This document shows positions 28,510 through 42,412 of a stretch of 64,000 nucleotides of DNA, in pieces (positions within the stretch are counted from its first letter, which is position 1; every line of letters begins with the position of its first letter). The stretch lies in NCBI GenBank assembly GCA_030650395.1, contig JAUSDY010000097.1:1-64000 (forward strand), given 5' to 3'. The translations under genes and the position numbers were made by a program. This DNA comes from Acidobacteriota bacterium (GTDB lineage: Bacteria; Acidobacteriota; Vicinamibacteria; Vicinamibacterales; UBA2999). Below the pieces are notes generated by a model. It was given only the letters and a program-made list of their open reading frames with translations, was not told where the DNA came from and ran no database searches.

Positions 28510-29912
28510 GTGCGCTCAGGACAAAGACGGCCGACAGCGATTGGCCACGTGTCCGTCTAAGCGATGTCGCCGATTCGATTCAGTATGGCCACACCGCAAG
28601 CGCGATAGGTCGTGACAAAGGGCCAAGATTTCTGCGCATCACCGATATTCAAGATGGGCGCGTTGATTGGGCGGCCGTACCATCCTGCGACATTTTGGCC
28701 ACTGAAGTTCCGAAGTATCGACTCCGTTCTGGCGATCTGGTTTTTGCTCGCACCGGGGCGACGACCGGCAAGAGCTATCTGATCGGGGATTGCCCTGAAG
28801 CAGTGTTCGCGTCGTACTTGATTCGCGTCCGTGTCTCGACAGCGGTTAGCGCTCGGTATTTGGCAGCCTTCTTCCAGAGCGCCGATTATTGGCAACAGAT
28901 CGAACGGGGCAAGCGGGGGATTGGGCAGCCCAATGTTAACGGCCGGACTCTGGGTGATGTGGTGTTGCCATTGCCTTCGATTGGCGTACAGCAGGAGGTC
29001 GTCGCGGAGATCGAGAAACAGTTCACGCGACTGGACGCTGGCGTGGCGGCGCTGCGGCGCGTGCAGGCCAACCTCAAGCGCTACCGCGCCGCCGTCCTTA
29101 ATGCCACCTTCGAAGGCCATCTGGTTCCAACGGAAGCCGAAGTCGCACGAACGGCTGGTGGTGAGTACGAAACAGGTGAGCAACTCCTTCAGCGCATTCT
29201 CACGGAGCGGTACAAAAAGGCAACTGGACAACGCAAGCGCAAAGAGCCGGCAGCTTCGGACGACGCGGGCCTTCCGAATCTCCCGATGGGCTGGACATGG
29301 GCGAACTTGGATCAACTGTCATGGGCGTCGTCCTACGGCACGTCCGCGAAATGCGGTTACGAGAATCCAGGCCCAGCGGTGCTCCGTATCCCCAACATCG
29401 CCAATGGCCGAATTGATCTGGCCGATCTGAAGTTCGCCGGGTCGCAGTCGCGCATTGAAAAGGGCGATGAGCTGGAGCCTGGCGACTTGCTGATCATCCG
29501 CACGAATGGAAGTAGGAACCTCATTGGCCGATCTGCCGTCGTGAGGCAGCCACTGAACCCAGCCGCCACATACGCTTCGTACCTGATTCGCTTCAGACTC
29601 GTTCGCGAGCCACGGCTCTTCGCCTGGCTGGCCACGATTTGGAACTGCAGTTTTCTGCGGGCGTGGATCGAGCGGCGGGCCGCGACATCAGCGGGGCAAC
29701 ACAACATCAGCATGAGTGTTCTCGCGACCCTCCCGATTCCTCTTCCGCCAATCAATGAGCAGAAGCGGATCGCCGACGAGGTTAGCCGTCTGTTCAGTGT
29801 CGTCGATGAGGCCGAAACGATCGTTGCGCTCAATCTTCAGCGCGCCACGCGTCTCCGGCAGTCGGTCTTGCAGCGGGCGTTCTCCGGAGCCGTGGCCCCT
29901 TCTCGTGCCTGA
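28506..29912 (+). CDS. hsdS: type I restriction enzyme, S (specificity) subunit
   Basis: 468 residues with two target-recognition domains of the Methylase_S type. The first (residues 1-160) runs from WPRVRLSDVADSIQYGHTAS to VVLPLPSIGVQQEVVAEIEK. The second (about 260-430) runs from MGWTWANLDQLSWASSYGTS to LATLPIPLPPINEQKRIADE. Each is followed by a conserved dimerisation helix (FTRLDAGVAALRRVQANLKR and LFSVVDEAETIVALNLQR). It sets a bipartite DNA target for HsdM and HsdR. The start overlaps the hsdR stop by four bases. Both domains are full length; the target sequence cannot be predicted from the sequence alone. Confidence 0.94.
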   Translation: MSALRTKTADSDWPRVRLSDVADSIQYGHTASAIGRDKGPRFLRITDIQDGRVDWAAVPSCDILATEVPKYRLRSGDLVFARTGATTGKSYLIGDCPEAVFASYLIRVRVSTAVSARYLAAFFQSADYWQQIERGKRGIGQPNVNGRTLGDVVLPLPSIGVQQEVVAEIEKQFTRLDAGVAALRRVQANLKRYRAAVLNATFEGHLVPTEAEVARTAGGEYETGEQLLQRILTERYKKATGQRKRKEPAASDDAGLPNLPMGWTWANLDQLSWASSYGTSAKCGYENPGPAVLRIPNIANGRIDLADLKFAGSQSRIEKGDELEPGDLLIIRTNGSRNLIGRSAVVRQPLNPAATYASYLIRFRLVREPRLFAWLATIWNCSFLRAWIERRAATSAGQHNISMSVLATLPIPLPPINEQKRIADEVSRLFSVVDEAETIVALNLQRATRLRQSVLQRAFSGAVAPSRA

Positions 29913-30176
29913 GGTCCTGCGGCAGACGATCAAGGATCGCGGCACCTCCTGCGTTGAGCCTCGCCCAGGGGACGTGGGCAGTTGTCTTGCGATGCTCAAC
30001 CTGTGTCTCCGCACACAACGCCGGATTTGGCGACTGTCGCGACCCCTCGCGCCCTCGCGGGGATCGCGTGGATCGACAGCCAAGTCGGACGGGTGTTCCG
30101 GAGACCATCGGCATGAAATCAGCGTGACCTGCCCTGTCACAGCCTTGGTACACTCTGCGGCAACGAGGGACATCCC
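29913..30176 (+). other. non-coding spacer between hsdS and the DUF5131 gene
   Basis: 264 bases without a credible gene. The last 60 contain CTGTCACAG and a TACACT hexamer at about 30150, and GAGGGA lies just before the next ATG. A promoter for the four inserted genes may start here; no strong -35 box is seen. Confidence 0.35.
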
Positions 30177-30965
30177 ATGAGCGACAACTCCAAGATCGAG
30201 TGGACCGACGCGACGTGGAATCCGGTGCGCGGGTGCACCAAGGTCAGCCCGGGCTGCAAACACTGCTACGCCGAGACGTTCGCTGAACGTTTTCGCGGTG
30301 TCCCAGGGCATCCGTTCGAGTTCGGCTTCGACCTGCGCCTCGTTCCTGAAAAGCTGACCGACCCACTGCGCTGGGCTACTCCGCGCATGATCTTTGTCAA
30401 CTCGATGAGCGACCTGTTTCACACGGACGTGCCAGACGACTACATCGAGGCCGTCGCACAAGTCATGATGCAGGCCAACTGGCACACGTACCAGATCCTT
30501 ACCAAGCGTGGCGACCGCATGCGCGCCTTGCTGCGTGGCAAGCTCAAAGATGCCGCGCGCCAGTCGCATATCTGGTGGGGCGTCAGCGTCGAGAACCGCA
30601 AGCACGGCCTGCCACGCATAGCTGAGCTTCGGGACAGCCCTGCCCGGGTTCGATTCCTTTCGATCGAGCCGCTGCTTGAAAATCTCGGGCGCATCAACCT
30701 CCGCGGTATTCACTGGGTCATTGTCGGTGGCGAAAGCGGCGCTGGCGCACGACCAATGTCGGCCGAGTGGGTGCGAGGCATCAAGGACCAATGCAAGAAT
30801 GCGGAGATCCCGTTCTTCTTCAAACAATGGGGCGGCGTCCGCAAAAAAGAAACCGGTCGCGAGCTGGACGGGCGAACGTACAGCCAGTTTCCTGACAGGA
30901 GCCGGGCGCCCGTGCTGAGCCTGGCGTCACGCCAGGCTTTGGCCGTTCAGTTGACTGCCGGGTAG
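30177..30965 (+). CDS. DUF5131 (phage Gp37/Gp68 family) three-Cys-motif protein
   Basis: 262 residues. The opening IEWTDATWNPVRGC, then TKVSPGCKHCYAETFAERF, is diagnostic. The three cysteines (Cys20, Cys27, Cys30; Cx6CxxC) may bind a metal or iron-sulfur cluster, and the barrel-like body (MIFVNSMSDLFHTDVPDDYI, IWWGVSVENRKHGLPRI, FLSIEPLLENLG, HWVIVGGESGAGARPM) recalls radical SAM folds. The gene is followed after 3 bases by tcmP, its usual partner. The biochemical function is not established. In this window the pair sits between the specificity and methylase genes of a type I restriction system. Confidence 0.88.
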   Translation: MSDNSKIEWTDATWNPVRGCTKVSPGCKHCYAETFAERFRGVPGHPFEFGFDLRLVPEKLTDPLRWATPRMIFVNSMSDLFHTDVPDDYIEAVAQVMMQANWHTYQILTKRGDRMRALLRGKLKDAARQSHIWWGVSVENRKHGLPRIAELRDSPARVRFLSIEPLLENLGRINLRGIHWVIVGGESGAGARPMSAEWVRGIKDQCKNAEIPFFFKQWGGVRKKETGRELDGRTYSQFPDRSRAPVLSLASRQALAVQLTAG

Positions 30966-30968
30966 GAC

Positions 30969-32039
30969 ATGCCCAAAGCGGGGTTTCACGATAAACCGTT
31001 TGACGAAGCAACTCTGACAAAGCTGCAGCTTTTCGAGCTCTACGCTCGGGAGTGGCTGCCGGTCTTCCTGTCGACAGCCGTCAGGCCTGAAGTCCACCTG
31101 TTTGACTTCTTCGCAGGCCCCGGCACCGATTCATCGGGAGTGAGCGGCAGCCCCCTTCGTCTTCTGAAGCAAGTCCGGGACTACTCCAATCTCGCTCAGA
31201 AGTCTGGGGTGAGCGTCCACGTCCATCTATTTGACGCCGATCCCGCTAAGATCGCGGCGCTCGATCGGAATATCGATGCGCGTGGCCTACGGCTGCCGAC
31301 CGTTCATCTTGAAGTCAAGGCGCTGCCATTCGAGCAAGCGCTTCAACGGTCGTGGCCCACGATCTCGAATTCCAGAGCAGCCAAGCTCCTCCTGATGGAC
31401 CAGTTCGGAATTGACCATGTCACTCCCGAAGTGTTCGTGCAGCTCGCGTCTGCGCCGACATGCGATTTTCTCTTCTTTGTCTCGTCGGCCACTTACTATC
31501 GCTTTCAGAATCATCCAGCCATCAAGCAGAAAATCAGTCGGCCTGATGACCATTACCAGACGCATGTCGCCGTCCTCGATTTCTATCGAGGCCTCCTCCC
31601 GGCTACACAGCGATTCTATTTGAGCCCCTTTTCCCTGAAGAAGGGATCCAACATCTACGGAGTTGTCTTCGGATCTGCGCATCCACGCGGCATGGACAAG
31701 TTCCTTCAAGTGGCTTGGGCTCAAGACGAAATCAACGGCGAGGCGGACTTCGACATCAATCGGGAGAATATTCGTGCCGACCAGATGCTTCTACCGATTC
31801 CAGGGTTCCGACCGAGCAAAGTCAGCGCGTTTGAAGCGGACCTCGAACAGCGGTTGCGCGACGGCCTTCTTACCAATGAGGCTGAGGTTGTTCAGGTGTG
31901 CTTCGATCACGGCGTGCGAAGACAGCACGCCGAGCCAGTGCTGAAGAGGCTCAAGGCCGAAGGCGTGATCGATCTCGGATTCCGAGTCCCGGACATCAAG
32001 AAGCTGGATTCACCAAGACCGATTCGCCGGACTCGATAG
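30969..32039 (+). CDS. tcmP: three-Cys-motif partner protein TcmP
   Basis: 356 residues. The N-terminal signature KAGFHDKPFDEATLTKLQLF and the DFFAGPGTDSSG loop (residues 46-57) place it in the TcmP family, named for co-occurrence with three-Cys-motif proteins such as the DUF5131 gene just upstream (3-base gap, no strong ribosome-binding site, so probably translationally coupled). LFDFFAGPG resembles a methyltransferase motif I, and LLLMDQFGIDHVT fits the position of motif IV, so a SAM-dependent methyltransferase-like fold is plausible. No experimentally proven role is known to me. Confidence 0.85.
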   Translation: MPKAGFHDKPFDEATLTKLQLFELYAREWLPVFLSTAVRPEVHLFDFFAGPGTDSSGVSGSPLRLLKQVRDYSNLAQKSGVSVHVHLFDADPAKIAALDRNIDARGLRLPTVHLEVKALPFEQALQRSWPTISNSRAAKLLLMDQFGIDHVTPEVFVQLASAPTCDFLFFVSSATYYRFQNHPAIKQKISRPDDHYQTHVAVLDFYRGLLPATQRFYLSPFSLKKGSNIYGVVFGSAHPRGMDKFLQVAWAQDEINGEADFDINRENIRADQMLLPIPGFRPSKVSAFEADLEQRLRDGLLTNEAEVVQVCFDHGVRRQHAEPVLKRLKAEGVIDLGFRVPDIKKLDSPRPIRRTR

Positions 32040-32073
32040 CGCTCCTCGCAAGATGCTCTAGACTGACTTAGCC

Positions 32074-33273
32074 ATGGCCTCAATTCCCGCCGACGTCAAT
32101 CCAGATCTCCTGATCTGGGCGCGCGAAGAGAGCGGCTATCCGTCCGACTTGGTCGCCAAGCGGATCGGAGTCAGAGTCGAACGCCTGGCGGAGTGGGAGG
32201 GAGGCGATAGGAAACCGACCGTCCGCCAGGTTCAGGAACTCGCGAAAAGCTACCACCGGTCGTTCGGCGTGTTCTTCCTGCCACAGCGGCCAACCATCCC
32301 GCCACTGGCCGCGGAGTATCGACGACTACCCGGTGTCCTCCCCGGCGTCGAGTCGCCGGAGTTCCGGCTGGCGCTGCGTCAGATGTCGCTGCGTCGCGAG
32401 AGAACAATAGAGCTGAATGACGAACTCGCGGTCACGGGCACGGAGTTCACAACTCCCGCGCACATATCTGAAGGACCTGCGGCTGTCGGACGGCGATTGC
32501 GCGATCTGCTGGGCGTGACGGTGGCGCGGCAGATGGCGTGGCGCGACGAGTGGCAGGCGTGGCGGGAATGGCGATCAGCGGTCGAAAACATTGGCGTATT
32601 GGTCTTCCAGTTTCCGAAGGTGCCGCTCGGCCAAGTGCGTGGGGTTTCGCTACTCAGCTTTCCTTCGCCCGTCATCGGCATCAACAGCAAGGAACTGTCG
32701 GCGGGCGCTCGCATCTTTACCCTTTTGCATGAGCTGGTTCATGTCGCCTTGGCGCTCGGGCAAGAGGAGCGCGTTGCGCTCCGTGAAGGTCGAAACGAAT
32801 CGCAGTGGGCCGAGGTCGAACGCTTCGCGGAGGAGGCGGCCAGCGAGGCGGTGATTCCTGAGGACGCTCTCAGAGCCGCATTGCGCACTAGCAGGGCCTC
32901 TGCTGACGGCTGGGATATCGCGCAAGTCCGGAGCTTGGCTGCGAGGTTCCGCGTGACGCCACTTGCGATGGCCACTCGCCTGCGGGCTGCGGGCGAAATG
33001 ACCTGGGAAGTCTATGCGCGCTGGAAGGATGCCTGGACCGAGTACGTCTCGAACTTGAAAGCCAGAACCGGCGGCATGGCTACCCCGGTCGATAAGGCGC
33101 TGAGCCGAGGAGGGCGACCGTTCGCCCAACTCGTGCTTGAGGCGCTCGATGCCAATCGAATTACGGCCGTGGACGCCAGTCGCTACCTGGACCTCCGATT
33201 CGATCACATCGCAACCCTCCGAACCGAGCTCGTCGCAACCACGGGCGTACCCGGCGTCGACGACGGCAGCTAG
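32074..33273 (+). CDS. XRE-type regulator fused to ImmA/IrrE metallopeptidase
   Basis: 399 residues. An N-terminal helix-turn-helix (about 12-62: LLIWAREESGYPSDLVAKRI...VRQVQELAKSYHRSF) is followed by an ImmA/IrrE zinc peptidase domain with LLHELVHVAL (HELVH 219-223) and the downstream acidic helix EVERFAEEAASEAVIPEDAL. Such COG2856 proteins cleave repressors in integrative elements or act as the antitoxin half of toxin-antitoxin pairs. The PIN-like DUF4411 gene follows after 14 bases, the usual arrangement for this pair. Hence it probably neutralises or controls that toxin; cleavage of another repressor is the alternative. Confidence 0.88.
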   Translation: MASIPADVNPDLLIWAREESGYPSDLVAKRIGVRVERLAEWEGGDRKPTVRQVQELAKSYHRSFGVFFLPQRPTIPPLAAEYRRLPGVLPGVESPEFRLALRQMSLRRERTIELNDELAVTGTEFTTPAHISEGPAAVGRRLRDLLGVTVARQMAWRDEWQAWREWRSAVENIGVLVFQFPKVPLGQVRGVSLLSFPSPVIGINSKELSAGARIFTLLHELVHVALALGQEERVALREGRNESQWAEVERFAEEAASEAVIPEDALRAALRTSRASADGWDIAQVRSLAARFRVTPLAMATRLRAAGEMTWEVYARWKDAWTEYVSNLKARTGGMATPVDKALSRGGRPFAQLVLEALDANRITAVDASRYLDLRFDHIATLRTELVATTGVPGVDDGS

Positions 33274-33287
33274 CGCGCAGGCTATCG

Positions 33288-33761
33288 ATGTACTCGATCG
33301 ACACCAGTGTCTTCATGGATTGGCAAGCGAGGTACTACCCACTCGATCTGTTTCCGTCTCTTGAAACCAGGTTCGACGAGCTGATCGCAGCTGGCAACTG
33401 TCGCGCTGTTCAGCTAGTGAAGGAGGAAATCGACGCTGTCGGAACGCCTGGACTGCGGACGTGGGCCAAGAACCGCGCTGCGCTTTTTGTTCCGATTGCG
33501 CCGGACGTTCAGGCCGCAGGAGCCACCATCGAGGCCTCCTATCCTGACCTGATGGATCCAAAGGGCCTTCACGAATCCGCGGACGCCTACGTTATTGCCC
33601 TCGCCCAGATAAACAGCGGTACTGTCGTTAGCCAAGAAACATCAGCCGCTGAAAAACGAAATACGAAGCGAACGCATTTCATTCCCGACGTCTGCCGAGA
33701 CCTGGGAATACCCTGCATCAATCTGTTTGGCCTGATGCGTAGCGAAGGCTGGAAGTTCTAG
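33288..33761 (+). CDS. DUF4411 PIN-like protein (probable toxin)
   Basis: 157 residues. Acidic residues fit the PIN nuclease pattern: Asp5 (YSIDTSVFMD), Glu47 (VKEEID) and Asp99 (HESADAYVIALA), with a terminal VVSQE strand near 113-117. DUF4411 proteins are typically encoded directly after XRE-ImmA/IrrE proteins and are considered RNase-type toxins. hsdM follows after 8 bases, so toxin and methylase are likely on one transcript. RNase activity is inferred. Confidence 0.82.
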   Translation: MYSIDTSVFMDWQARYYPLDLFPSLETRFDELIAAGNCRAVQLVKEEIDAVGTPGLRTWAKNRAALFVPIAPDVQAAGATIEASYPDLMDPKGLHESADAYVIALAQINSGTVVSQETSAAEKRNTKRTHFIPDVCRDLGIPCINLFGLMRSEGWKF

Positions 33762-33769
33762 ACCGTCCG

Positions 33770-35236
33770 ATGAGCCCATCCGCCCTCGTTCAGAAACTCT
33801 GGAACTACTGCAACATCCTCCGAGACGACGGCCTGTCGTACGGTGACTACGTTGAGCAACTGACGTATCTGCTGTTCCTCAAGATGGCGGACGAGCAAAG
33901 TCGACCTCCGCACAACCGGCCGACGCCGATTCCGAAGGGCTTCGGCTGGCGAGCGCTGCTGAAACTTGATGGCGATGACCTGGAGACGCACTATCGCCAT
34001 ACACTTGAGGAACTCGGCAAGCGCCCCGCAATGCTCGGCCTGATCTTTCGCAAGGCGCAGAACAAGATTCAAGACCCCGCTAAGCTGCGCAGGCTCATAG
34101 TCGATCTGATCGACAAGGAAGAGTGGTCGCGCCTTGACGCCGACGTTAAGGGAGACGCCTATGAGGGCCTGCTGCAGAAGAACGCAGAGGACGTCAAGGG
34201 CGGCGCGGGCCAGTATTTCACGCCGCGCGCCCTCATTGCGGCCATGGTGGACGTGATGGCGCCGCAGCCTGGCCAGTCGATTTGTGATCCTGCATGCGGT
34301 ACGGGCGGCTTCTTGCTCGCTGCGCACGACTACCTGTCAATGAATCACAAGCTCGATCGGGAACAGAAGAAGAAACTGAAGAGCGGCACACTGTTGGGGA
34401 TCGAGCTCGTGGACAGTGTCGCGAGACTGTGCGCGATGAATCTGCTGTTGCACGGCATCGCCGGCGGCTCAGACAGCGATCTGCCGGTCATCGGCGGGCG
34501 TGATGCGCTGGCTGCGAAGCACGGCGAGTACGACATCGTCCTCGCCAACCCGCCCTTTGGCAAGAAGAGCAGCGTCACGATTGTCAACGACGCCGGCGAT
34601 CAGCAGCGCGAATCCCTCATCATCAACCGCGACGATTTCTGGGCGACTACCAGCAACAAGCAGCTCAACTTCTTGCAGCACATCTTCACCATCCTCAAAC
34701 AGCATGGCCGCGCGGCCGTTGTGTTGCCAGACAACGTGCTGTTCGAAGGTGGTGCCGGCGAGACGATCCGCCGCCAACTGCTGAATCAGGCCGACGTTCA
34801 CACACTGCTGCGCCTGCCCACCGGCATCTTCTACGCACAAGGCGTGAAGGCCAATGTGTTGTTCTTCGATCGGAAGCCGGCGCGGGAGAAGCCGTGGACC
34901 GATGCTCTCTGGATCTATGACCTCCGTACAAACTTCCACTTCACCCTGAAAGAGAATCCTCTCAAGCGTGCCGACCTTGACGACTTCGTAAAGTGCTGCA
35001 ATCCGAAGAATCGCCACAACCGAAAGGATAGCGAGCGGTTCAAGCGCTTCAGCTACGAAGACCTCACGAAGCGCGACAAGGTGAATCTCGATATCTTCTG
35101 GCTGAAGGATGAATCGTTGGAAGAGTCAGCAAATCTGCCGGCGCCTGGCGTCATCGCCGCGGAGATCGCCGAGGACCTGCAGGCTGCGCTTGAACAATTT
35201 GCGGCGATTGCCGACGACCTGAAGGCGCCGCGCTAA
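33770..35236 (+). CDS. hsdM: type I restriction enzyme, M (adenine methylase) subunit
   Basis: 488 residues. The N-terminal helical HsdM_N domain (LVQKLWNYCNILRDDGLSYG) is followed by the N6-adenine methyltransferase core: SAM motif I DPACGTGG (173-180) and catalytic NPPF (260-263). GAGQYFTPRALIAAMVDVM just before motif I is also typical. With HsdS it marks host DNA, and with HsdR it completes the restriction complex. Unusually it is last in the cluster, about 3.9 kb downstream of hsdS, behind four unrelated genes. No strong ribosome-binding site is seen, so expression may depend on the upstream PIN-like gene. Confidence 0.95.
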   Translation: MSPSALVQKLWNYCNILRDDGLSYGDYVEQLTYLLFLKMADEQSRPPHNRPTPIPKGFGWRALLKLDGDDLETHYRHTLEELGKRPAMLGLIFRKAQNKIQDPAKLRRLIVDLIDKEEWSRLDADVKGDAYEGLLQKNAEDVKGGAGQYFTPRALIAAMVDVMAPQPGQSICDPACGTGGFLLAAHDYLSMNHKLDREQKKKLKSGTLLGIELVDSVARLCAMNLLLHGIAGGSDSDLPVIGGRDALAAKHGEYDIVLANPPFGKKSSVTIVNDAGDQQRESLIINRDDFWATTSNKQLNFLQHIFTILKQHGRAAVVLPDNVLFEGGAGETIRRQLLNQADVHTLLRLPTGIFYAQGVKANVLFFDRKPAREKPWTDALWIYDLRTNFHFTLKENPLKRADLDDFVKCCNPKNRHNRKDSERFKRFSYEDLTKRDKVNLDIFWLKDESLEESANLPAPGVIAAEIAEDLQAALEQFAAIADDLKAPR

Positions 35237-35281: not shown

Positions 35282-35636
35282 TCACAGTCTTGTTTCCCTA
35301 GGCGTGATCAGGACATCAACACCGTTACCCCTGAGATTTGCCTCTACCCGGACCGCCAGAGGGGGCAGGTGCTTCCCTCTGCTCTCCCACCAGTCAAGAT
35401 TCTCGTCGACGTCCAGTGAGCCATAACCAGCGGCGAAGACGCGGTAAATCACCGACTGCTGGGGAACTCTCATGTTTGTCGGTACGACCAATCCAGCATT
35501 TCGCGCGGCCTCATTTGGACTTGAATGAACTGCGCGGAGCAGACCTGTTGGGGCCTCAACGAAGCCGAGCCCTGGCTGGTCCTGCAAAAGACGCTGGTCC
35601 TTGCGCAAGCCAAGTTCAGCCCGAATTAACACACAT
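35282..35636 (-). pseudogene. ImmA/IrrE-type peptidase gene, 3' fragment cut off by IS21
   Basis: Without the insertion, these codons (LIRAELGLRKDQRLLQDQPG to DVLITPRETRL and stop) follow directly after codon 226 of the gene at 38326-39003. The frame crosses the 7-bp target duplication without a break. The fragment has no start codon of its own other than a GTG created at the junction. It is convergent with hsdM, 45 bases from its stop. Confidence 0.85.
35630..35636. repeat. target-site duplication of the IS21-family element, left copy
   Basis: CACACAT, identical to 38326-38332 at the other end. Seven bases is within the 4-8 bp range for IS21 family elements. It shows that the insertion was a single transposition event. 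Confidence 0.9.
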
Positions 35637-35741
35637 TGTTAGCGAACGGTCAAATGCGGCCACTCCCGAACGTCTGAAAACCGGCCACGGCAGGTAAGGG
35701 AATTCAGGCATCCTGAAGGGTTTCCCCCTTGGAGGATGTCG

Positions 35742-37313
35742 ATGACCAATTACCTGAAGATGCCGAAGAAACAACAAGTTATCGCCCTGCTGGCCCTCGG
35801 CTGGAGTTACCGTCGGATTGAAGCCGAGACCGGTGTCCATCGCGAGACGGTCGCCGGCTACGATCCGAACCGCGCGCCAAAACCGGCCAAAACGTTCCCC
35901 GGCTCTGATCCGTCCCCACCGGGCGCCACCGGCGAGGACCGGACCGCCGACGATTCAAATCCGGCCACAACGTTCGCCGGCTCGCCCGCAAATCCGGCCA
36001 AAACGTTCCCCGGCTCGGCGCCGCGGCGACGATTCTCCGCGGCGGTCTATCGCGCGGCGATCACCGAAAAACTCGACGCGGGGTTGAGCCTCCAGCGCGT
36101 CTGGCAGGACCTCGTCGAAGAGTACGGCTACGGCGCCAGTTATGAATCGGTGAAGCGGTTTGTGCGGACGCTCACGCCCACGCGCCGCGCCGTGGGCGTC
36201 TTTCATTGCGCGCCAGGCGCCGAGGCACAGGTCGACTTCTTCCAGGGCGCGCCCACGCTCGAGCCCACGACGGGTGAGTGGCGTCGGCCGTGGGTCTTTC
36301 GCATGACGCTCGGTCACTCGCGGCACGGCTACGAAGAAGCCGTCTGGGATCAGAAGCTCGCGACGTTTCTGCGTCTGCACGAACGGGCGTTTCGTGATCT
36401 CGGCGGCGTGGCCCTCGTGATTCGCCACGATAATCTAAAAGCCGCCGTCGTGCGCGCGTGCTTCTACGATCCCGACAGTCACGAGGTCTACCTCGCGTTC
36501 GCCGCCCACTGGGGCTTCACGCCGCTGCCGACCCGGCCCCGCTACCCGCAGGAAAACGGCAAGCAAGAGCGGAGCGGCGGCTACGTCAAAGACAACGCGC
36601 TGAAGGGGCGACGCTTCGACAGCTTGGACGCGCAGAACGCCTTTCTGCGACACTGGAATCGGACCATTGCGCGGCTGCGGATCCACGGGACGACGCGTCG
36701 CCAGGTGTGGACGCACTTCGTCGAGGCCGAGCAACGCGCCCTCCAGCCGCTCGCCGCGACGGCGTTCCCCATCTTCACCAGCGGCGCGCGGACGGTGCAC
36801 GCCGACGGCCATGTCGAAGTCGACGGCAGCTTCTATCCCGTGCCGCTCGCGCTGCTCGGCCAGGGCGTGCGCGTGCAGTGGGACGCGCACCTGGTCCGCG
36901 TCTTCCACACCGACACCCTCGTCGCCGTCCACGCGAAAGTCGCGGCCGGGCTGTTTGCGCCGCGCGCCGGGGAGGCCGAGGCCTCGACGCGACAACAGGC
37001 GTATGTCGACCACCTCCTCGGCCGGTGCGCGCGCGTCGGTCCGGCCCTGCGGCTGTGGGCCGACGCGGCGATCCTCGCGCGAGGCGTGCGGGCGATTCGT
37101 CTGATTCAAGGCGTGCTCAGCCTGACGCGGCGGCATCCGCGCGAGCGCGTACTCCACGCGGTCGCCCAGGCGCACACCCATCAACTCTTTCGCTACCAGC
37201 TGGTGCGGCGCCTCGTCGAGGCCGCGCCGGCTCCGTCCGCGCCCTCGCTCGTCGCCGACGATCCGGCGATTCGCCCGATGACCCAGTACACCTTGGAGGA
37301 CTTTCTCAAATGA
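35742..37313 (+). CDS. istA: IS21-family transposase IstA
   Basis: 523 residues from the ATG at 35742, which has GGAGG at the right distance; the ATG at 35736 directly abuts the Shine-Dalgarno. A helix-turn-helix (QVIALLALGWSYRRIEAETG) is followed by a linker with PAKTFPGS-type repeats (about residues 48-95), longer than usual. The DDE catalytic core then has Asp in EAQVDFFQGAP, Asp in LVIRHDNLKAAVV and Glu in GKQERSGGYVKDNAL. It cuts and joins the element's ends, with IstB as regulator. All three acidic residues are present. Confidence 0.95.
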   Translation: MTNYLKMPKKQQVIALLALGWSYRRIEAETGVHRETVAGYDPNRAPKPAKTFPGSDPSPPGATGEDRTADDSNPATTFAGSPANPAKTFPGSAPRRRFSAAVYRAAITEKLDAGLSLQRVWQDLVEEYGYGASYESVKRFVRTLTPTRRAVGVFHCAPGAEAQVDFFQGAPTLEPTTGEWRRPWVFRMTLGHSRHGYEEAVWDQKLATFLRLHERAFRDLGGVALVIRHDNLKAAVVRACFYDPDSHEVYLAFAAHWGFTPLPTRPRYPQENGKQERSGGYVKDNALKGRRFDSLDAQNAFLRHWNRTIARLRIHGTTRRQVWTHFVEAEQRALQPLAATAFPIFTSGARTVHADGHVEVDGSFYPVPLALLGQGVRVQWDAHLVRVFHTDTLVAVHAKVAAGLFAPRAGEAEASTRQQAYVDHLLGRCARVGPALRLWADAAILARGVRAIRLIQGVLSLTRRHPRERVLHAVAQAHTHQLFRYQLVRRLVEAAPAPSAPSLVADDPAIRPMTQYTLEDFLK

Positions 37314-38056
37314 ATGCTCAACTCTCGACCCGTCTCCGCCATCTCCGTCTCTCCGGCATGGTCGAAGCGCTTCCCGGCCGCGTCGCCCAGGCCGAGGCCG
37401 CGCCGCTCCCGCACCTCGAATTCCTCGAGCTCCTCGTCGAGGACGAACTCACCCGTCGGGCCGACCGGCTCTATGCGCGTCGGCTCAAGCAGGCCGGCAT
37501 CGTGACCGTGAAGACGCTGGCCGATTTCGAGTGGGCCTTCAATCCGAAGCTCCCGAAGGTGAAACTCGTCGAGCTCGCCAGTGCGCGCTTTGTCCAGACC
37601 CACGCCGGCGTCTTGCTCATTGGGCCGCCGGGCGTCGGCAAATCGCACCTCGCGACGGCGATCGCGGTCGGCGCCATCCGCGCCGGCCGGCGGGTCCTGA
37701 TCCGCAGCACCTTCGATTTGGTCGCCGACTTCGCCGAAGCCGAGGCCACCGGGGCGCGCCGCGCCCTCGTGCAGCAGCTGACACGCGTCGACCTCCTCGT
37801 CCTCGAGGATTTCGGGATGAAGAGACTCGGCGCGACCGCCGCGGAGGATCTCTTGGAAATCTTCGTCCGTCGGCACGAAGCCGCGTCGACGCTCATTACG
37901 ACGAATCGGCCCACGCAGGACTGGGGCATCTTTCTCGGCGACGTGCCGGCCGCCACCGCGATCCTCGATCGCTTCTTGGCCCACGCCGAGATTGTGCCCA
38001 TGACGGGCAAGAGCTACCGCTTCCGGCAACGCGCCAGCGCCCCGCCCGAGGCGTGA
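37310..38056 (+). CDS. istB: IS21-family helper ATPase IstB
   Basis: 248 residues starting at the ATG that overlaps the istA stop (ATGA); the much longer open frame upstream is only a shadow of istA. An N-terminal helical domain (LRLSGMVEALPGRVAQAEAA) leads to a DnaA/DnaC-like AAA+ domain with Walker A GPPGVGKSH (105-113), Walker B LLVLEDFG and TLITTNRPTQDW. IstB activates IstA and helps target DNA selection. Intact. Confidence 0.95.
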   Translation: MNAQLSTRLRHLRLSGMVEALPGRVAQAEAAPLPHLEFLELLVEDELTRRADRLYARRLKQAGIVTVKTLADFEWAFNPKLPKVKLVELASARFVQTHAGVLLIGPPGVGKSHLATAIAVGAIRAGRRVLIRSTFDLVADFAEAEATGARRALVQQLTRVDLLVLEDFGMKRLGATAAEDLLEIFVRRHEAASTLITTNRPTQDWGIFLGDVPAATAILDRFLAHAEIVPMTGKSYRFRQRASAPPEA

Positions 38057-38325
38057 CGACGGCCCATGGACGCTGCCGGAGCCGTGGACGCACAGCACGC
38101 GCCCACCGCTCCTTGGAAAACCCCAAAACGGTTTTCCACAAGCGCCCACCGGCGCAATCGTTTTCTGTCGGGAACGAAGAACGGCAGGGGACACTTCTAT
38201 TTCGCTTGGACAAGAAACAGCGCCCGCGCTTGTGTGTGGGAAGGAATCAGACGATACTCAACGCCCCTACCGCGTGGCCGGTTTTCAAACGTTCTTCAGT
38301 GGCCGCATTTAGACGTTCGGTGACA
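38057..38325. other. non-coding right end of the IS21-family element
   Basis: After the istB stop, about 215 bases carry no gene. The last 53 bases form the right terminal inverted repeat. The flanking sequence resumes at 38326 with the target duplication. Confidence 0.8.
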
Positions 38326-38332
38326 CACACAT
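38326..38332. repeat. target-site duplication of the IS21-family element, right copy
   Basis: CACACAT, identical to 35630-35636. Confidence 0.9.
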
Positions 38333-39003
38333 GGCCGTGGCCACGCCCGCACGAGCCCGATAACAGCGGATTGTTTGCTTGCCTCTGGAGCGAGTCGTAC
38401 CCGAAGCTCCTCGATTCTTCTGAATGAAATCGGGCCAATGGCGTACTTGGCGATCAACTCCGGGAAGAAAGCGAACTTCCCAGCAATGACGTCCATTAAT
38501 CCCTCTTCTGGATCCTTGTGCTCGGGAAGGACATGAGTACGACAGAACCTCAGACGCATCTGGGGTGTAAGTGTCAAGAGGTGCGCGAGTTCATGCCATT
38601 TAGAGAAGTAGGACCTAAAACGTTTCGCGCCACGGCAATCGATTAAGGAGACAAACTTGCGGTCTCCCTTCCCACCCCTTTGAAGGCCAAACGTAATCGC
38701 ATAGACGTCTGGACCGAGCTGATGTTCAAGGTCAGCGAACGACACTTCTCCGCGACCAGAATACTCATCGCGGACCCGAAGCAACGTTTTGTCGCTGTCT
38801 ATCTCGATGAAGAGCGTGTCGAGTTTGATTGCGGCCAGCTGTAACAGGTCGGTAGGCGTAGCACAGCCATGCTCTTGAATGAACGCACGAATTTTCTTCT
38901 GGCACAAGCGGATGATGGCACCCACTGGGTCCCCGTCGTGCTTCGCACCTAGGTCGGCTGCAAGTCTCCAGAGGCGAGGGTCATTCTTCAGGTTCGATGC
39001 CAT
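38326..39003 (-). pseudogene. ImmA/IrrE-type peptidase gene, 5' part (interrupted by IS21 insertion)
   Basis: 226 codons from the ATG at 39003 to the insertion point. A zinc-peptidase motif KWHELAHLLTL (HELAH 137-141) and a later EEGLMDVIAGKFAF helix identify the ImmA/IrrE superfamily. The N-terminal region (DPRLWRLAADLGAKHDGDPV, GCATPTDLLQLAAIKLDTLF) has the usual helical lead. Joined to 35282-35629 the full protein is 341 residues. The start overlaps the XRE gene by 23 bases, so the two are an operon. The catalytic part is upstream of the break, so a truncated product may be made, but the C-terminal third is replaced by about 10 read-through residues from the IS. Confidence 0.85.
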
Positions 39004-39412
39004 CGGAGTACACCTTCGTAATCGCCAGGTAGAGTCGCTTCCACTCGTCGACACTTCTCTCACGCGTCGCTTGGGTTGCTCGTCGAGCAACAACCGCTTG
39101 GTGCGCGTCGAGCAGTGTCATCGTTTCCGAGTAGCTCAACCCTAGTTGCTCCGCCGCCTCCGACAGTGTTCGCGGAATCGTGACCGGTTCACGCTCACGT
39201 TCTTCACGACCAGTCTCGCCCCGCAATAGGTAGTCCAGCGACGCGCCCAATACACCTGCAATCCTGAGCACGTAGTCGGTACTGATGTTCCGCTTGTTGT
39301 TCTCTACTTCGCTGAGGAACCCCTTACTAATTTTTGTTTCCAGCGCTAACCGCTCCTGCGTCCAATTGCGCCTTTCTCTAACTTCTTTGATTCGGTCACC
39401 GATTGTAGGCAC
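38981..39412 (-). CDS. XRE-family regulator
   Basis: 143 residues. The Cro/CI helix-turn-helix occupies residues 6-62 (IKEVRERRNWTQERLALETK, then ISKGFLSEVENNKRNISTDY). The second half has a short Arg/Glu-rich linker and a helix. It is the first gene of the operon with the interrupted ImmA/IrrE peptidase, which presumably cleaves it. It is divergent from the DUF2188 gene, and paired CGCTATAC repeats in the shared promoter region are likely its binding sites. With the peptidase broken, repression may now be permanent. Confidence 0.9.
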   Translation of the reverse strand: MPTIGDRIKEVRERRNWTQERLALETKISKGFLSEVENNKRNISTDYVLRIAGVLGASLDYLLRGETGREEREREPVTIPRTLSEAAEQLGLSYSETMTLLDAHQAVVARRATQATRERSVDEWKRLYLAITKVYSDGIEPEE

Positions 39413-39476: not shown

Positions 39477-39524
39477 TTGCACCAAAACAAGAGGTTCGCT
39501 ATACTTGTACTATTCTCGCTATAC
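39477..39524 (+). promoter_or_regulatory. sigma70-type promoter with two operator repeats spaced 20 bp
   Basis: TTGCAC (39477-39482), a 17-base spacer and TATACT (39500-39505) make a strong housekeeping promoter toward the DUF2188 gene. CGCTATAC occurs at 39497-39504 and again at 39517-39524, exactly 20 bases apart, so both face the same side of the helix. The first copy overlaps the -10 box. They are good candidates for XRE repressor binding. Minus-strand promoter elements for the XRE gene probably overlap. Confidence 0.65.
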
Positions 39525-39580: not shown

Positions 39581-39811
39581 ATGGCGAAACGGCAGGGGCC
39601 AGTGATGGTTACCCACAAAGGCAACCGCTGGCCGGTAAAGCAGGATGGCCAGACCATTTCAGTGCATCGAACGCAGAAGGCAGCGAACGAAGTCGGCCGA
39701 CGTGAAGCGATCAAGGACGGCGTAGAACGAATCACGCAAGGTCGCGACCACAAGTTCGTGAGCAAAGACAGCTACGGATCCGAATCCAAAGTCCGGGACA
39801 CGGAACACTAG
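39581..39811 (+). CDS. DUF2188 family small protein
   Basis: 76 residues from the ATG at 39581, preceded by GAGGAG; an earlier in-frame start at 39548 lacks a site. Family features are the short beta-strands VMVTHKGNRWPVKQDG, the helix QKAANEVGRREAI and the closing RDHKFVSKDSYGSES. DUF2188 proteins are small, basic and of unknown function, frequent in mobile regions. It is first in line before the two unknown genes that follow. Confidence 0.78.
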   Translation: MAKRQGPVMVTHKGNRWPVKQDGQTISVHRTQKAANEVGRREAIKDGVERITQGRDHKFVSKDSYGSESKVRDTEH

Positions 39812-39822
39812 ACGGAGGGGTG

Positions 39823-40824
39823 ATGTTCATTTACTCGAATCCGACTGGCGACCCAGCCCTCGAAGGAGAGGCACTCGAGTCTTATCGAGCACAAGTGCAC
39901 CAGCAGTACTCGCGCTGCGCAGCCCACAGAAAGTCGGCTTTCACCCACCTCCACGCTTTCGATGGCGTCCAGACGACTGCGATCGACCACGTAACTTGGC
40001 CTGCCTTCCCAAAGGTTAGCAGCGGGATCGATCTGGCTCAGATCGATCAGCAACGAAGCGACCTTCAGGACGAGTACGTTGAGTGGTGTGCGGATCGCAG
40101 CGGCGGCCGTGTTTCTCGGGTCACATTCACGACCGAATTCCATGAGCCCTTTTTGATCCTTGCTCGGCAAGGACTGGCGGCAGCGGTTGACGGGATTAGG
40201 AATCTTTATCCCAATTCTCATCCCACTGGCCGAGAGCTTTTCGGCATCGACGACTCGCAGATCGAGCAGTTGTCCCCGGATGACAGAGAACAGACGTTTC
40301 AGAACCATGTCCAGAGAAACCCCTGGAACAACGGTGAATTCGGGATCCTGTTTCTTACTCACCGGAGCAATAACATGTTCGCTCTCTTCGAACTGGCGAA
40401 CGATTGTGCGACGCCGAACCTGTCGCTCGCAGCCTCCGACGTCTGCGCCAAGACCAATTGCGCTGTCGGCCGCAATTCCGACCCCGCGGTGTGCCAGGCC
40501 TTGCAACTGATCGCGAGAGCCGATCGAAGTCTCGCTCTCACAGACGCACCAGGCGTGACCATACGTAAGCTCGGTGGAGTTTGGGAACTCAACGGCGTTC
40601 AGATCGACGTCAACGCGCCAGCTGCGAATGTCTGGCAGGTTAGTCGTAACCGTCGTCGGGGAGTGCTTGAAGTTTCTGCCGGCCTCACGCTCGCTGGCGA
40701 GCCGATTAGATCAGGTGCCCAGGTCGCCAAAGCCCTACAAGTAGGCGTCTCTGTACTTTCAGCCCCTGACGCCGACCTTCCGTTTTGGGCCCGACGCGGC
40801 AACGAATCGACCAGAAGGGTCTGA
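39823..40824 (+). CDS. unrecognised cytosolic protein, partner of the haem protein gene
   Basis: 333 residues from the ATG at 39823, with GGAGG upstream. There is no signal peptide or membrane segment. Cysteines cluster in one stretch of about 35 residues (DCATPN, DVCAKTNCAVG, DPAVCQ), possibly for metal or disulfide binding. Other notable stretches are AIDHVTWPAFPKVSSGIDLA, NPWNNGEFGILFLTHRSNN and GVWELNGVQIDVNAPAANVW. I do not recognise a family. It lies between a DUF2188 gene and an exported CxxCH protein gene (16-base gap), probably all in one operon. Confidence 0.6.
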   Translation: MFIYSNPTGDPALEGEALESYRAQVHQQYSRCAAHRKSAFTHLHAFDGVQTTAIDHVTWPAFPKVSSGIDLAQIDQQRSDLQDEYVEWCADRSGGRVSRVTFTTEFHEPFLILARQGLAAAVDGIRNLYPNSHPTGRELFGIDDSQIEQLSPDDREQTFQNHVQRNPWNNGEFGILFLTHRSNNMFALFELANDCATPNLSLAASDVCAKTNCAVGRNSDPAVCQALQLIARADRSLALTDAPGVTIRKLGGVWELNGVQIDVNAPAANVWQVSRNRRRGVLEVSAGLTLAGEPIRSGAQVAKALQVGVSVLSAPDADLPFWARRGNESTRRV

Positions 40825-40840
40825 GAAGGACAAATCAACG

Positions 40841-42412
40841 ATGAACGCCCATAGATTCCTTTTGCTAATACTCGTCTGTATGTTTGGAGCCAGTGCTTTT
40901 GTTTCGACCAGACAAGAGGGCCTGCGGAAACAGCTTCGCGTGTCAGACGTCCCTTCAGTCATGACCGAAGCAGAGCTGATGGAGTTGGAAGACCCATTCT
41001 TCAGGCTTGTCCTGAAGCAGCCGGGACAAATGACGAGCCTTTCGGCCATCGAGGATCGGCTTCAGCCAAATCGTTCGCAGCGTCAAGTTTTCGTCGTGTC
41101 CGAAGACATTGCGCGGAGTTCACATGGCCAACGGCGCATGGTTGTCTCCTTTGATGGAACCAGCAGCGCGGGACCATTGGACGGGAACGTCATGCTGTCT
41201 GTGTTTTTTGATCCTAATGGACCCGACGGCCAGCCTATCGAGGCTTGGGGCTGGGATGAAAGGCGTGGTCGCTATAACTATTACAAACTCGATTCGTCCC
41301 CTAGTCAGCAACAGATGTTTTGGACGTTTCGGGGCTCTTCGGATTTGGCCGATCACAAGTCACCTTCCGAAAGGCAGGGAACCTGCCTGAGTTGCCATAT
41401 CAACGGTGCCCCGATTATGAAGGAATTGTTCTTTCCCTGGAACAATTGGGACTCGTTCAAATTTCGGGCTCAGTACCTCAGGCCCTCAGGCTTGAGTCCT
41501 TGGCCCATTGCGCGCTCGCCTCGCCTGACCCAGCTTTCTGGTGCTGAGAGCCTTGAGGGGATGATCATGTCTTCGCTCGACCGGTTCAATCGGAGACGGG
41601 TTGCCGACCTGGTCAGTCCGACCGACAGCCGCCGGTTCGACGCGCGACTGGTGTTGAAGCCGATATTCGCCACCACGGAAGTAAATATTGTTAGCGCCGA
41701 TGTTGAGTCGGGTATGCACCCGTTTCAAGCGCCGCGAACTGGACGGCCGACGAGCGAGGTGGTAGTGCCCTCTTCGTTCTTCTTGAATGTGGCGCTCCTT
41801 TCAACCCTTGGCATCTCGGAAGCCAATCGCTTCAACGGGTTGGCCCGACTCAATCCTGAGGAGTACTCTCGTCTCATAAGCGAGACGCGAACTTTGTTTG
41901 ACGACGAGGTCGGGGATACGCTGTTCGCATGGTTCACGCCGGAGCCAAGTCATATTGACAACAACTATGTTGCCGGATTGATTAGTAGTGGACTGGTGTC
42001 GCGAGACCTAATTGCGGCGGCCCAGCTTGTTGATTTGGAGCGTCCGGTCCTCTCAGCAGACAGAGAATCTTTACTATCCGTAATCCCCGCCCGAGTCGCC
42101 TTGGGTGGAGACGGCGCGGCGTTGAAGTCGTCTGTGCTCGAATTGGCAAGACTGCAGAAGCCTGATTCAACATCTCCAACGGCGTTCTTTGTGGAAACTC
42201 TCGCGTCCGGGCAGGCCATTGAACGCCTCCGTTTGCGTGTAGTTGAGTACCTCGATCGCGAAACCAAGGCACTCGGAGATCCAGCGACTAGGTCGACGGA
42301 ACTCTCGCGCCTCTATCAATTGTTGCTTCGACGGCGACGCGACGTATTGCGGCACCCGGAACTCTCCGCACTCGATGAGACCGGGGGGCTCCTATTTCCC
42401 TTGCCAAAGTGA
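40841..42412 (+). CDS. exported protein with one c-type haem motif, function unknown
   Basis: 523 residues. An N-terminal hydrophobic signal (FLLLILVCMFGASAFV) suggests export. A single haem c attachment motif CLSCH is at residues 182-186 (GTCLSCHINGAP). FWTFRGSSDLADHKSPSERQ just before it and LFFPWNNWDSFKFRAQYL after it look like conserved cores. The C-terminal 250 residues are mainly helical. The protein is far larger than a cytochrome c, so it may be a redox enzyme or haem-carrying scaffold. It is the last gene before the right border repeat of the island. Not recognised further. Confidence 0.62.
   Translation: MNAHRFLLLILVCMFGASAFVSTRQEGLRKQLRVSDVPSVMTEAELMELEDPFFRLVLKQPGQMTSLSAIEDRLQPNRSQRQVFVVSEDIARSSHGQRRMVVSFDGTSSAGPLDGNVMLSVFFDPNGPDGQPIEAWGWDERRGRYNYYKLDSSPSQQQMFWTFRGSSDLADHKSPSERQGTCLSCHINGAPIMKELFFPWNNWDSFKFRAQYLRPSGLSPWPIARSPRLTQLSGAESLEGMIMSSLDRFNRRRVADLVSPTDSRRFDARLVLKPIFATTEVNIVSADVESGMHPFQAPRTGRPTSEVVVPSSFFLNVALLSTLGISEANRFNGLARLNPEEYSRLISETRTLFDDEVGDTLFAWFTPEPSHIDNNYVAGLISSGLVSRDLIAAAQLVDLERPVLSADRESLLSVIPARVALGGDGAALKSSVLELARLQKPDSTSPTAFFVETLASGQAIERLRLRVVEYLDRETKALGDPATRSTELSRLYQLLLRRRRDVLRHPELSALDETGGLLFPLPK

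What the first reader, a model, noticed from the sequence alone, without database searches (positions are those of the whole stretch)
35282..39003. IS21 insertion cleanly splits an ImmA/IrrE-type peptidase gene
A 7-bp duplication (CACACAT) flanks the element. Removing the element and one copy leaves 226 + 115 codons in one uninterrupted frame with the HELAH motif at 137-141. This shows a recent insertion that probably inactivated the anti-repressor protease of the XRE operon, which may lock the repressor on its operator.
Basis: seen in the sequence. Interest (0 to 1): 0.68.

Follow-up and report, generated by a model that had tools for sequence, protein, structure and literature searches.

The report
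Jumping gene cuts immune-switch protease
A bacterial jumping gene has landed inside the gene for a protease that probably switches on a neighbouring operon when it senses DNA damage; it cuts off the sensor half and leaves the cutting half, a recent and mostly ordinary gene disruption in a controller type that is already known.

Summary
A 2,689-bp IS21 element (35637-38325) lies between two CACACAT copies. Joining the flanks gives one 341-codon frame with HELAH at 137-141. A second copy of the element in this genome, with its own 7-bp duplication, splits a NaeI-type restriction endonuclease gene.

Pfam recognises nothing in the protein, but the predicted fold is PprI/IrrE and CapP, and PADLOC's capP model hits 19 of 26 family members. 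The insertion falls on the first strand of the C-terminal GAF-like sensor domain. The catalytic part stays open as a 235-codon frame, so 'sensor cut off' fits better than 'protease destroyed'.

In relatives the XRE-protease pair stands next to CBASS, ubiquitin-like and restriction genes, with a shared operator (TATAGCGAAC) over the divergent promoter. In this genome the paired operator occurs once, in front of DUF2188 and two unknown genes. No expression data exist. The IS disruption is ordinary; the diverged CapH/CapP-like family with its operator is the useful part.

The parts
35637..38325 (+). IS21-family insertion sequence, 2,689 bp, imperfect 53-bp terminal inverted repeats (83%)
35630..35636 (.). 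target duplication CACACAT, left copy
38326..38332 (.). target duplication CACACAT, right copy
35736..37313 (+). istA transposase, 525 aa
   Evidence: NF033546 3.8e-66
37310..38056 (+). istB helper ATPase, 248 aa
   Evidence: NF038214 1.2e-65
38326..39003 (-). codons 1-226 of the CapP/PprI-like protease: catalytic (HELAH 137-141) and helical parts; as it stands the frame runs on 9 codons into the IS (stop at 38296-38298)
35282..35636 (-). codons 227-341 and stop: almost all of the GAF-like sensor domain (35630-35636 is the duplicated stretch)
38981..39412 (-). XRE-type repressor, 143 aa, CapH/DdrO-like partner
   Evidence: PF01381 6.5e-15; conserved next to the protease in all 24 distinct uninterrupted relatives
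39494..39523 (-). operator: two TATAGCGA half-sites 20 bp apart, the only such pair in the genome
39477..39505 (+). probable divergent promoter TTGCAC-17-TATACT (8 of 12; weak by itself, supported by position in relatives)
39581..39811 (+). DUF2188 protein (PADLOC candidate PDC-S16), first gene of the divergent operon
   Evidence: PF09954 7e-10; PDC-S16 8.9e-12
39820..40824 (+). second gene of the divergent operon, unknown
   Evidence: no Pfam match; relatives on Rhizobium plasmids
40841..42412 (+). third gene of the divergent operon, unknown
   Evidence: no Pfam match; relative on a Rhizobium plasmid

Best explanation
An IS21 element recently inserted into the protease gene of a CapH/CapP-like (PprI-DdrO-like) two-gene controller. 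In the intact system the XRE protein represses a divergent operon through TATAGCGAAC sites that cover its -10 region. On DNA damage the protease, activated through its C-terminal GAF-like domain (probably by single-stranded DNA, as in PprI and CapP), cuts the XRE protein and the operon is expressed. Here the IS separates the catalytic part (226 residues plus 9 from the IS) from the GAF-like sensor; the XRE gene, the operator and the divergent operon are intact. The operon should therefore stay repressed and not respond to damage, whether the short protease is made with only basal activity or is degraded. Shown: anatomy, duplication, full-length relatives, predicted fold, operator conservation, immune neighbours in relatives. 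Inferred: cleavage of XRE, ssDNA as signal, stability of the short product, loss of induction.
For: Duplication and frame; a second copy with identical ends and its own duplication; 24 distinct uninterrupted relatives, each with an XRE gene 45-58% identical directly upstream; alignment continuous across the junction. Fold of relative L051 (pLDDT 91): Foldseek PprI 3.7e-9, IrrE 7.8e-8, CapP 1.6e-7; VIA Z 17.1 for CapP (239 residues, 4.1 A) and 15.8 for PprI. PADLOC capP model hits 19 of 26 members, best 2.7e-6. Residue 226, last before the IS, is the first residue of strand 226-233 of the GAF-like domain. Operator half-site within one mismatch in 18 of 24 upstream regions against 3.2% of control windows; divergent promoter of 10/12 or better in 10 of 24 against 1.5% of shuffles. 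Genes beside the cassette in relatives: CD-NTase, SAVED, ThiF/E2/JAB, AAA, type I restriction genes. GAF-less PprI keeps basal but loses ssDNA-stimulated cleavage. Loss of a related protease is tolerated in S. mutans.
Against: No expression, cleavage or binding data. The window's divergent operon (DUF2188 plus two unknown genes) is not a known immune operon, and its own promoter is weak by consensus (8/12). The short product may be unstable. Profile searches against PDB sequences and Pfam give nothing, so kinship to CapP/PprI rests on fold, gene order and a weak PADLOC match; the restored window protein itself has no PADLOC match at E 0.1.
Confidence: 0.7

Rival explanations
1. Plain loss of function: the interrupted protein is not made or is degraded, the XRE repressor is never cleaved and the operon is permanently off.
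For: Truncated proteins with a disordered foreign tail are often unstable (inference; tail pLDDT 40). Deletion of the related ImmA is tolerated. GAF-less PprI hardly rescues a knock-out strain.
Against: The catalytic part keeps an open frame, all nearly invariant residues of the HExxH region and a confident predicted fold; GAF-less PprI is still active in vitro.
Confidence: 0.4
2. Deregulation: without the sensor domain the protease cuts XRE constitutively, so the divergent operon is always on.
For: In some proteases the regulatory domain restrains activity; the catalytic part is kept.
Against: In PprI the GAF-like domain is needed for activation and its removal leaves only basal activity; constitutive immune operons are likely to be costly.
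Confidence: 0.12
3. The insertion is an assembly artefact: the IS was joined to the wrong flanks from its second copy, or is present in only part of the population.
For: The genome is a draft of 180 contigs and the other copy was left broken at contig ends.
Against: The duplication and the reading frame match only between the two C52 flanks, and CAATGAG matches only between C11 and C33. Partial presence in the population cannot be excluded.
Confidence: 0.05

Closest known systems
CapH/CapP controllers of CBASS and other immune operons (Lau et al. 2022, as cited in PMC13373217; CapP structure 7T5T)
   Same: [quoted passage not shown] immune operons as neighbours; fold match Z 17.1; weak capP profile matches in 19 of 26 members
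   Different: Sequence too far for Pfam, NCBIfam or PDB profile searches; operator TATAGCGAAC (not compared with known CapH operators); in the window the divergent operon is not a recognised immune system and the protease gene is split
PprI(IrrE)/DdrO of Deinococcus (8SLM, 8SLN, 3DTE)
   Same: Fold over peptidase, helical and GAF-like parts; separate small XRE-type repressor
   Different: Here a tight local two-gene operon with one operator pair in the genome instead of a regulon of repair genes
ImmR/ImmA of ICEBs1 and TnSmu1
   Same: Two-gene repressor and anti-repressor protease logic
   Different: Here a protease with a GAF-like sensor domain; no conjugative element genes were noted beside the cassette (not searched for as such)
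IS21 family insertion sequences
   Same: istA, istB, long imperfect terminal repeats, 7-bp duplication
   Different: Nothing unusual; the closest near-full-length relatives in the class are 73% identical

Membership tests
IS21 family | istA transposase and istB helper ATPase | tested here: met
   NF033546 3.8e-66; NF038214 1.2e-65, PF01695 7.1e-61
IS21 family | Terminal inverted repeats and short target duplication | tested here: met
   53-bp ends 83% identical; 7-bp duplications at two sites
CapH/CapP controller | XRE gene directly upstream of a HExxH protease gene | tested here: met
   window and all 24 distinct uninterrupted relatives
CapH/CapP controller | Protease with CapP fold: peptidase plus GAF-like domain | tested here: met
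   predicted model of relative L051: VIA Z 17.1 to 7T5T over residues 29-340
CapH/CapP controller | Sequence match to the capP profile | tested here: inconclusive
   19 of 26 members match, best 2.7e-6; restored window protein none at E 0.1
CapH/CapP controller | Adjacent immune operon | tested here: met
   in relatives: CBASS, ThiF/E2, restriction genes; in the window the island holds restriction genes but the divergent operon itself is of unknown function
CapH/CapP controller | ssDNA-activated cleavage of the repressor | not testable with these tools
   needs protein biochemistry
Peptidase family M78 as defined by Pfam PF06114 | Match to the Pfam model | tested here: not met
   no match for the restored protein, its two pieces or four relatives; the fold agrees nonetheless

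The most novel reading that the evidence does not exclude
The insertion made a natural sensor-less immune-switch protease that is still expressed and cuts its repressor at a basal rate without responding to damage, so the host keeps the operon at a fixed low level; together with the same IS in the NaeI gene, one mobile element has disabled two immunity functions in one genome.
Probability: 0.2. Interest if true: 0.5.

Novelty: new member of a known kind. Interest (0 to 1): 0.36.

Why it matters
The insertion itself is an everyday event. What is useful is a diverged CapH/CapP-like family in Acidobacteriota, Desulfobacterota and a few others that Pfam and NCBIfam do not recognise, with a conserved operator that points to the operon it guards (CBASS, ubiquitin-like and restriction operons in relatives). 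The split copy is a natural domain truncation that could test whether the GAF-like domain acts as an activator, as reported for PprI.

Tried and rejected
Searches with the restored protein against Pfam, NCBIfam, PADLOC, PDB sequences, plasmids, phages and the window's own class found nothing; viral contigs and plasmids gave nothing with the family either. The phylum search and the alignment-based scan did. Preference of this IS for immune genes: both copies here hit such genes or islands, but related elements elsewhere in the class do not do so consistently, and intolerance of insertions in essential genes gives the same bias; rejected as unproven. A half-site-like TTAGCGAAC in the IS end (two mismatches to the operator): a site that close occurs in 17% of random 260-bp stretches, so chance. 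A wider regulon of the XRE protein: the paired operator occurs once in the genome; single 10-mers are not informative. A consensus promoter and terminator scan of the region found nothing above chance.

Full report
Observation. The element is 35637-38325, flanked by CACACAT at 35630-35636 and 38326-38332; the joined flanks read 341 codons and a stop on the minus strand, with HELAH at 137-141. As the DNA stands, the first part reads 226 own codons and 9 codons of IS sequence before a stop. istA and istB are intact. The genome (5.41 Mb, 180 contigs) holds one further copy: the last 138 bases of contig C11 are the left end of the element and the first 138 bases of C33 are its right end, both 100% identical, and both flanks carry CAATGAG. 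This fixes the ends of the element, gives a 7-bp duplication at both sites, and shows that the C52 copy was not put together from the wrong flanks. Intact transposition genes, perfect duplications, identical ends and two undecayed half genes all speak for a recent event.

Is the restored protein real? Neither holds. Four genomes of the phylum and 22 loci of the GTDB collection (one shared) encode relatives. In 24 distinct loci one uninterrupted frame of 325-363 codons covers residues from about 1-21 to 334-338 of the 341, at 32-48% identity; one further locus (L058) is in three pieces. Most are in Acidobacteriota and Desulfobacterota. The window's own genome belongs to the same phylum as G397, whose contig (same length, 250,194 bases) is titled Acidobacteria. 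No relative was found in the window's own class (193 genomes), so the cassette was probably acquired (inference). The alignment runs through the junction in the conserved stretch PC[IV]L.

What the protein is. The predicted structure of relative L051 (pLDDT 91.0, pTM 0.87) supports it: best Foldseek matches are PprI (3.7e-9), IrrE (7.8e-8) and CapP (1.6e-7), and the structural aligner gives CapP Z 17.1 (239 residues, 4.1 A) and PprI Z 15.8; a Mycobacterium tuberculosis regulator follows at 12.8, and everything after that is at 8.0 or less. The C-terminal part alone also matches many PAS/GAF-type sensor domains. PADLOC's capP model matches 19 of 26 members, best 2.7e-6. Residue 226, the last before the IS, is the first residue of strand 226-233, the first strand of the GAF-like domain. 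The 235-residue frame that remains is predicted with pLDDT 89.5 and still aligns with CapP at Z 10.8 over 164 residues; the added residues at the end are of low confidence (Foldseek E-values for this shorter model are weak, 0.015 at best).

What it controls. In the window and all 24 distinct uninterrupted relatives the XRE gene (45-58% identical) lies directly upstream, abutting or overlapping. Upstream of the XRE gene there is a conserved site TATAGCGAAC, within one mismatch in 18 of 24 regions (window included) against 3.2% of control windows from the same loci (the consensus was read from the same set, so the contrast is somewhat flattered). It covers the -10 of a promoter that points away from the XRE gene (typically TTGACA-16/17-TATA): 10 of 24 loci score at least 10/12 on that strand against 1.5% of shuffles. 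The window's own version is weaker (TTGCAC-17-TATACT, 8/12) and not above chance alone. Its two half-sites are 20 bp apart at 39494-39523, and this pair occurs nowhere else in the genome. Genes beside the cassette in relatives include immune genes: CD-NTases (SMODS, DncV-like), SAVED, patatin, ThiF/E2/JAB/multi-ubiquitin, AAA proteins, and type I restriction genes. In the window the cassette is at the end of an island with HsdR, HsdS, DUF5131, TcmP, an XRE-M78 fusion, DUF4411 and HsdM, and the divergent operon is DUF2188 plus two genes of unknown function.

How it works and what the insertion does. By analogy with PprI-DdrO and CapP-CapH, damage-derived ssDNA activates the protease, which cuts the repressor (PMC10904395, PMC13373217). 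In PprI, a protein without the GAF-like domain cuts as well as the full one when no ssDNA is present, but neither binds ssDNA nor is stimulated by it, and hardly rescues a knock-out. The insertion here makes nearly the same cut. So the expected outcome is an operon that no longer answers to damage. A plain null would give the same outward result, and removal of the related ImmA is tolerated in S. mutans.

The second copy. On C33 and C11 the two halves of a gene match Pfam NaeI at profile positions 16-75 and 73-263, next to a Vsr endonuclease gene, a C5 DNA methylase gene and, on the other side, an HNH endonuclease gene. The pieces were searched apart and not joined. Related elements in other genomes of the class do not sit in immune genes consistently, so no targeting is claimed.

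Verdict. Real, recent, and well explained: an ordinary IS21 disruption inside a diverged CapH/CapP-like controller. New member of a known kind.

Noticed in passing
L011 5164-5913 and L010 122-466 (genome contigs C11 end, C33 start): The second copy of the same IS21 element splits a NaeI-type restriction endonuclease gene beside vsr and a C5 DNA methylase gene, with a CAATGAG duplication.
   Followed up: yes
39820-40824 and 40841-42412: Two genes of unknown function without Pfam match form a pair that recurs, in swapped order, on a Rhizobium ruizarguesonis symbiotic plasmid (29-30% identity).
   Followed up: partly
25729-35236: A type I restriction system has its hsdR and hsdS genes separated from hsdM by DUF5131, TcmP, an XRE-M78 fusion and DUF4411; the last two look like an antitoxin-toxin pair.
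   Followed up: partly
L058 8046-9118: The relative in a Formivibrio assembly is in three pieces, a decayed copy or an assembly error.
   Followed up: no
L082 2-775 and 4812-4863: An end of a related IS21 element lies some 4 kb from a DUF5131-like gene in another genome of the class.
   Followed up: no
L036 6284-13889: In one relative the XRE-protease pair is followed on the same strand by hsdM, hsdS and hsdR, so the arrangement towards the neighbouring immune genes is not always divergent.
   Followed up: partly
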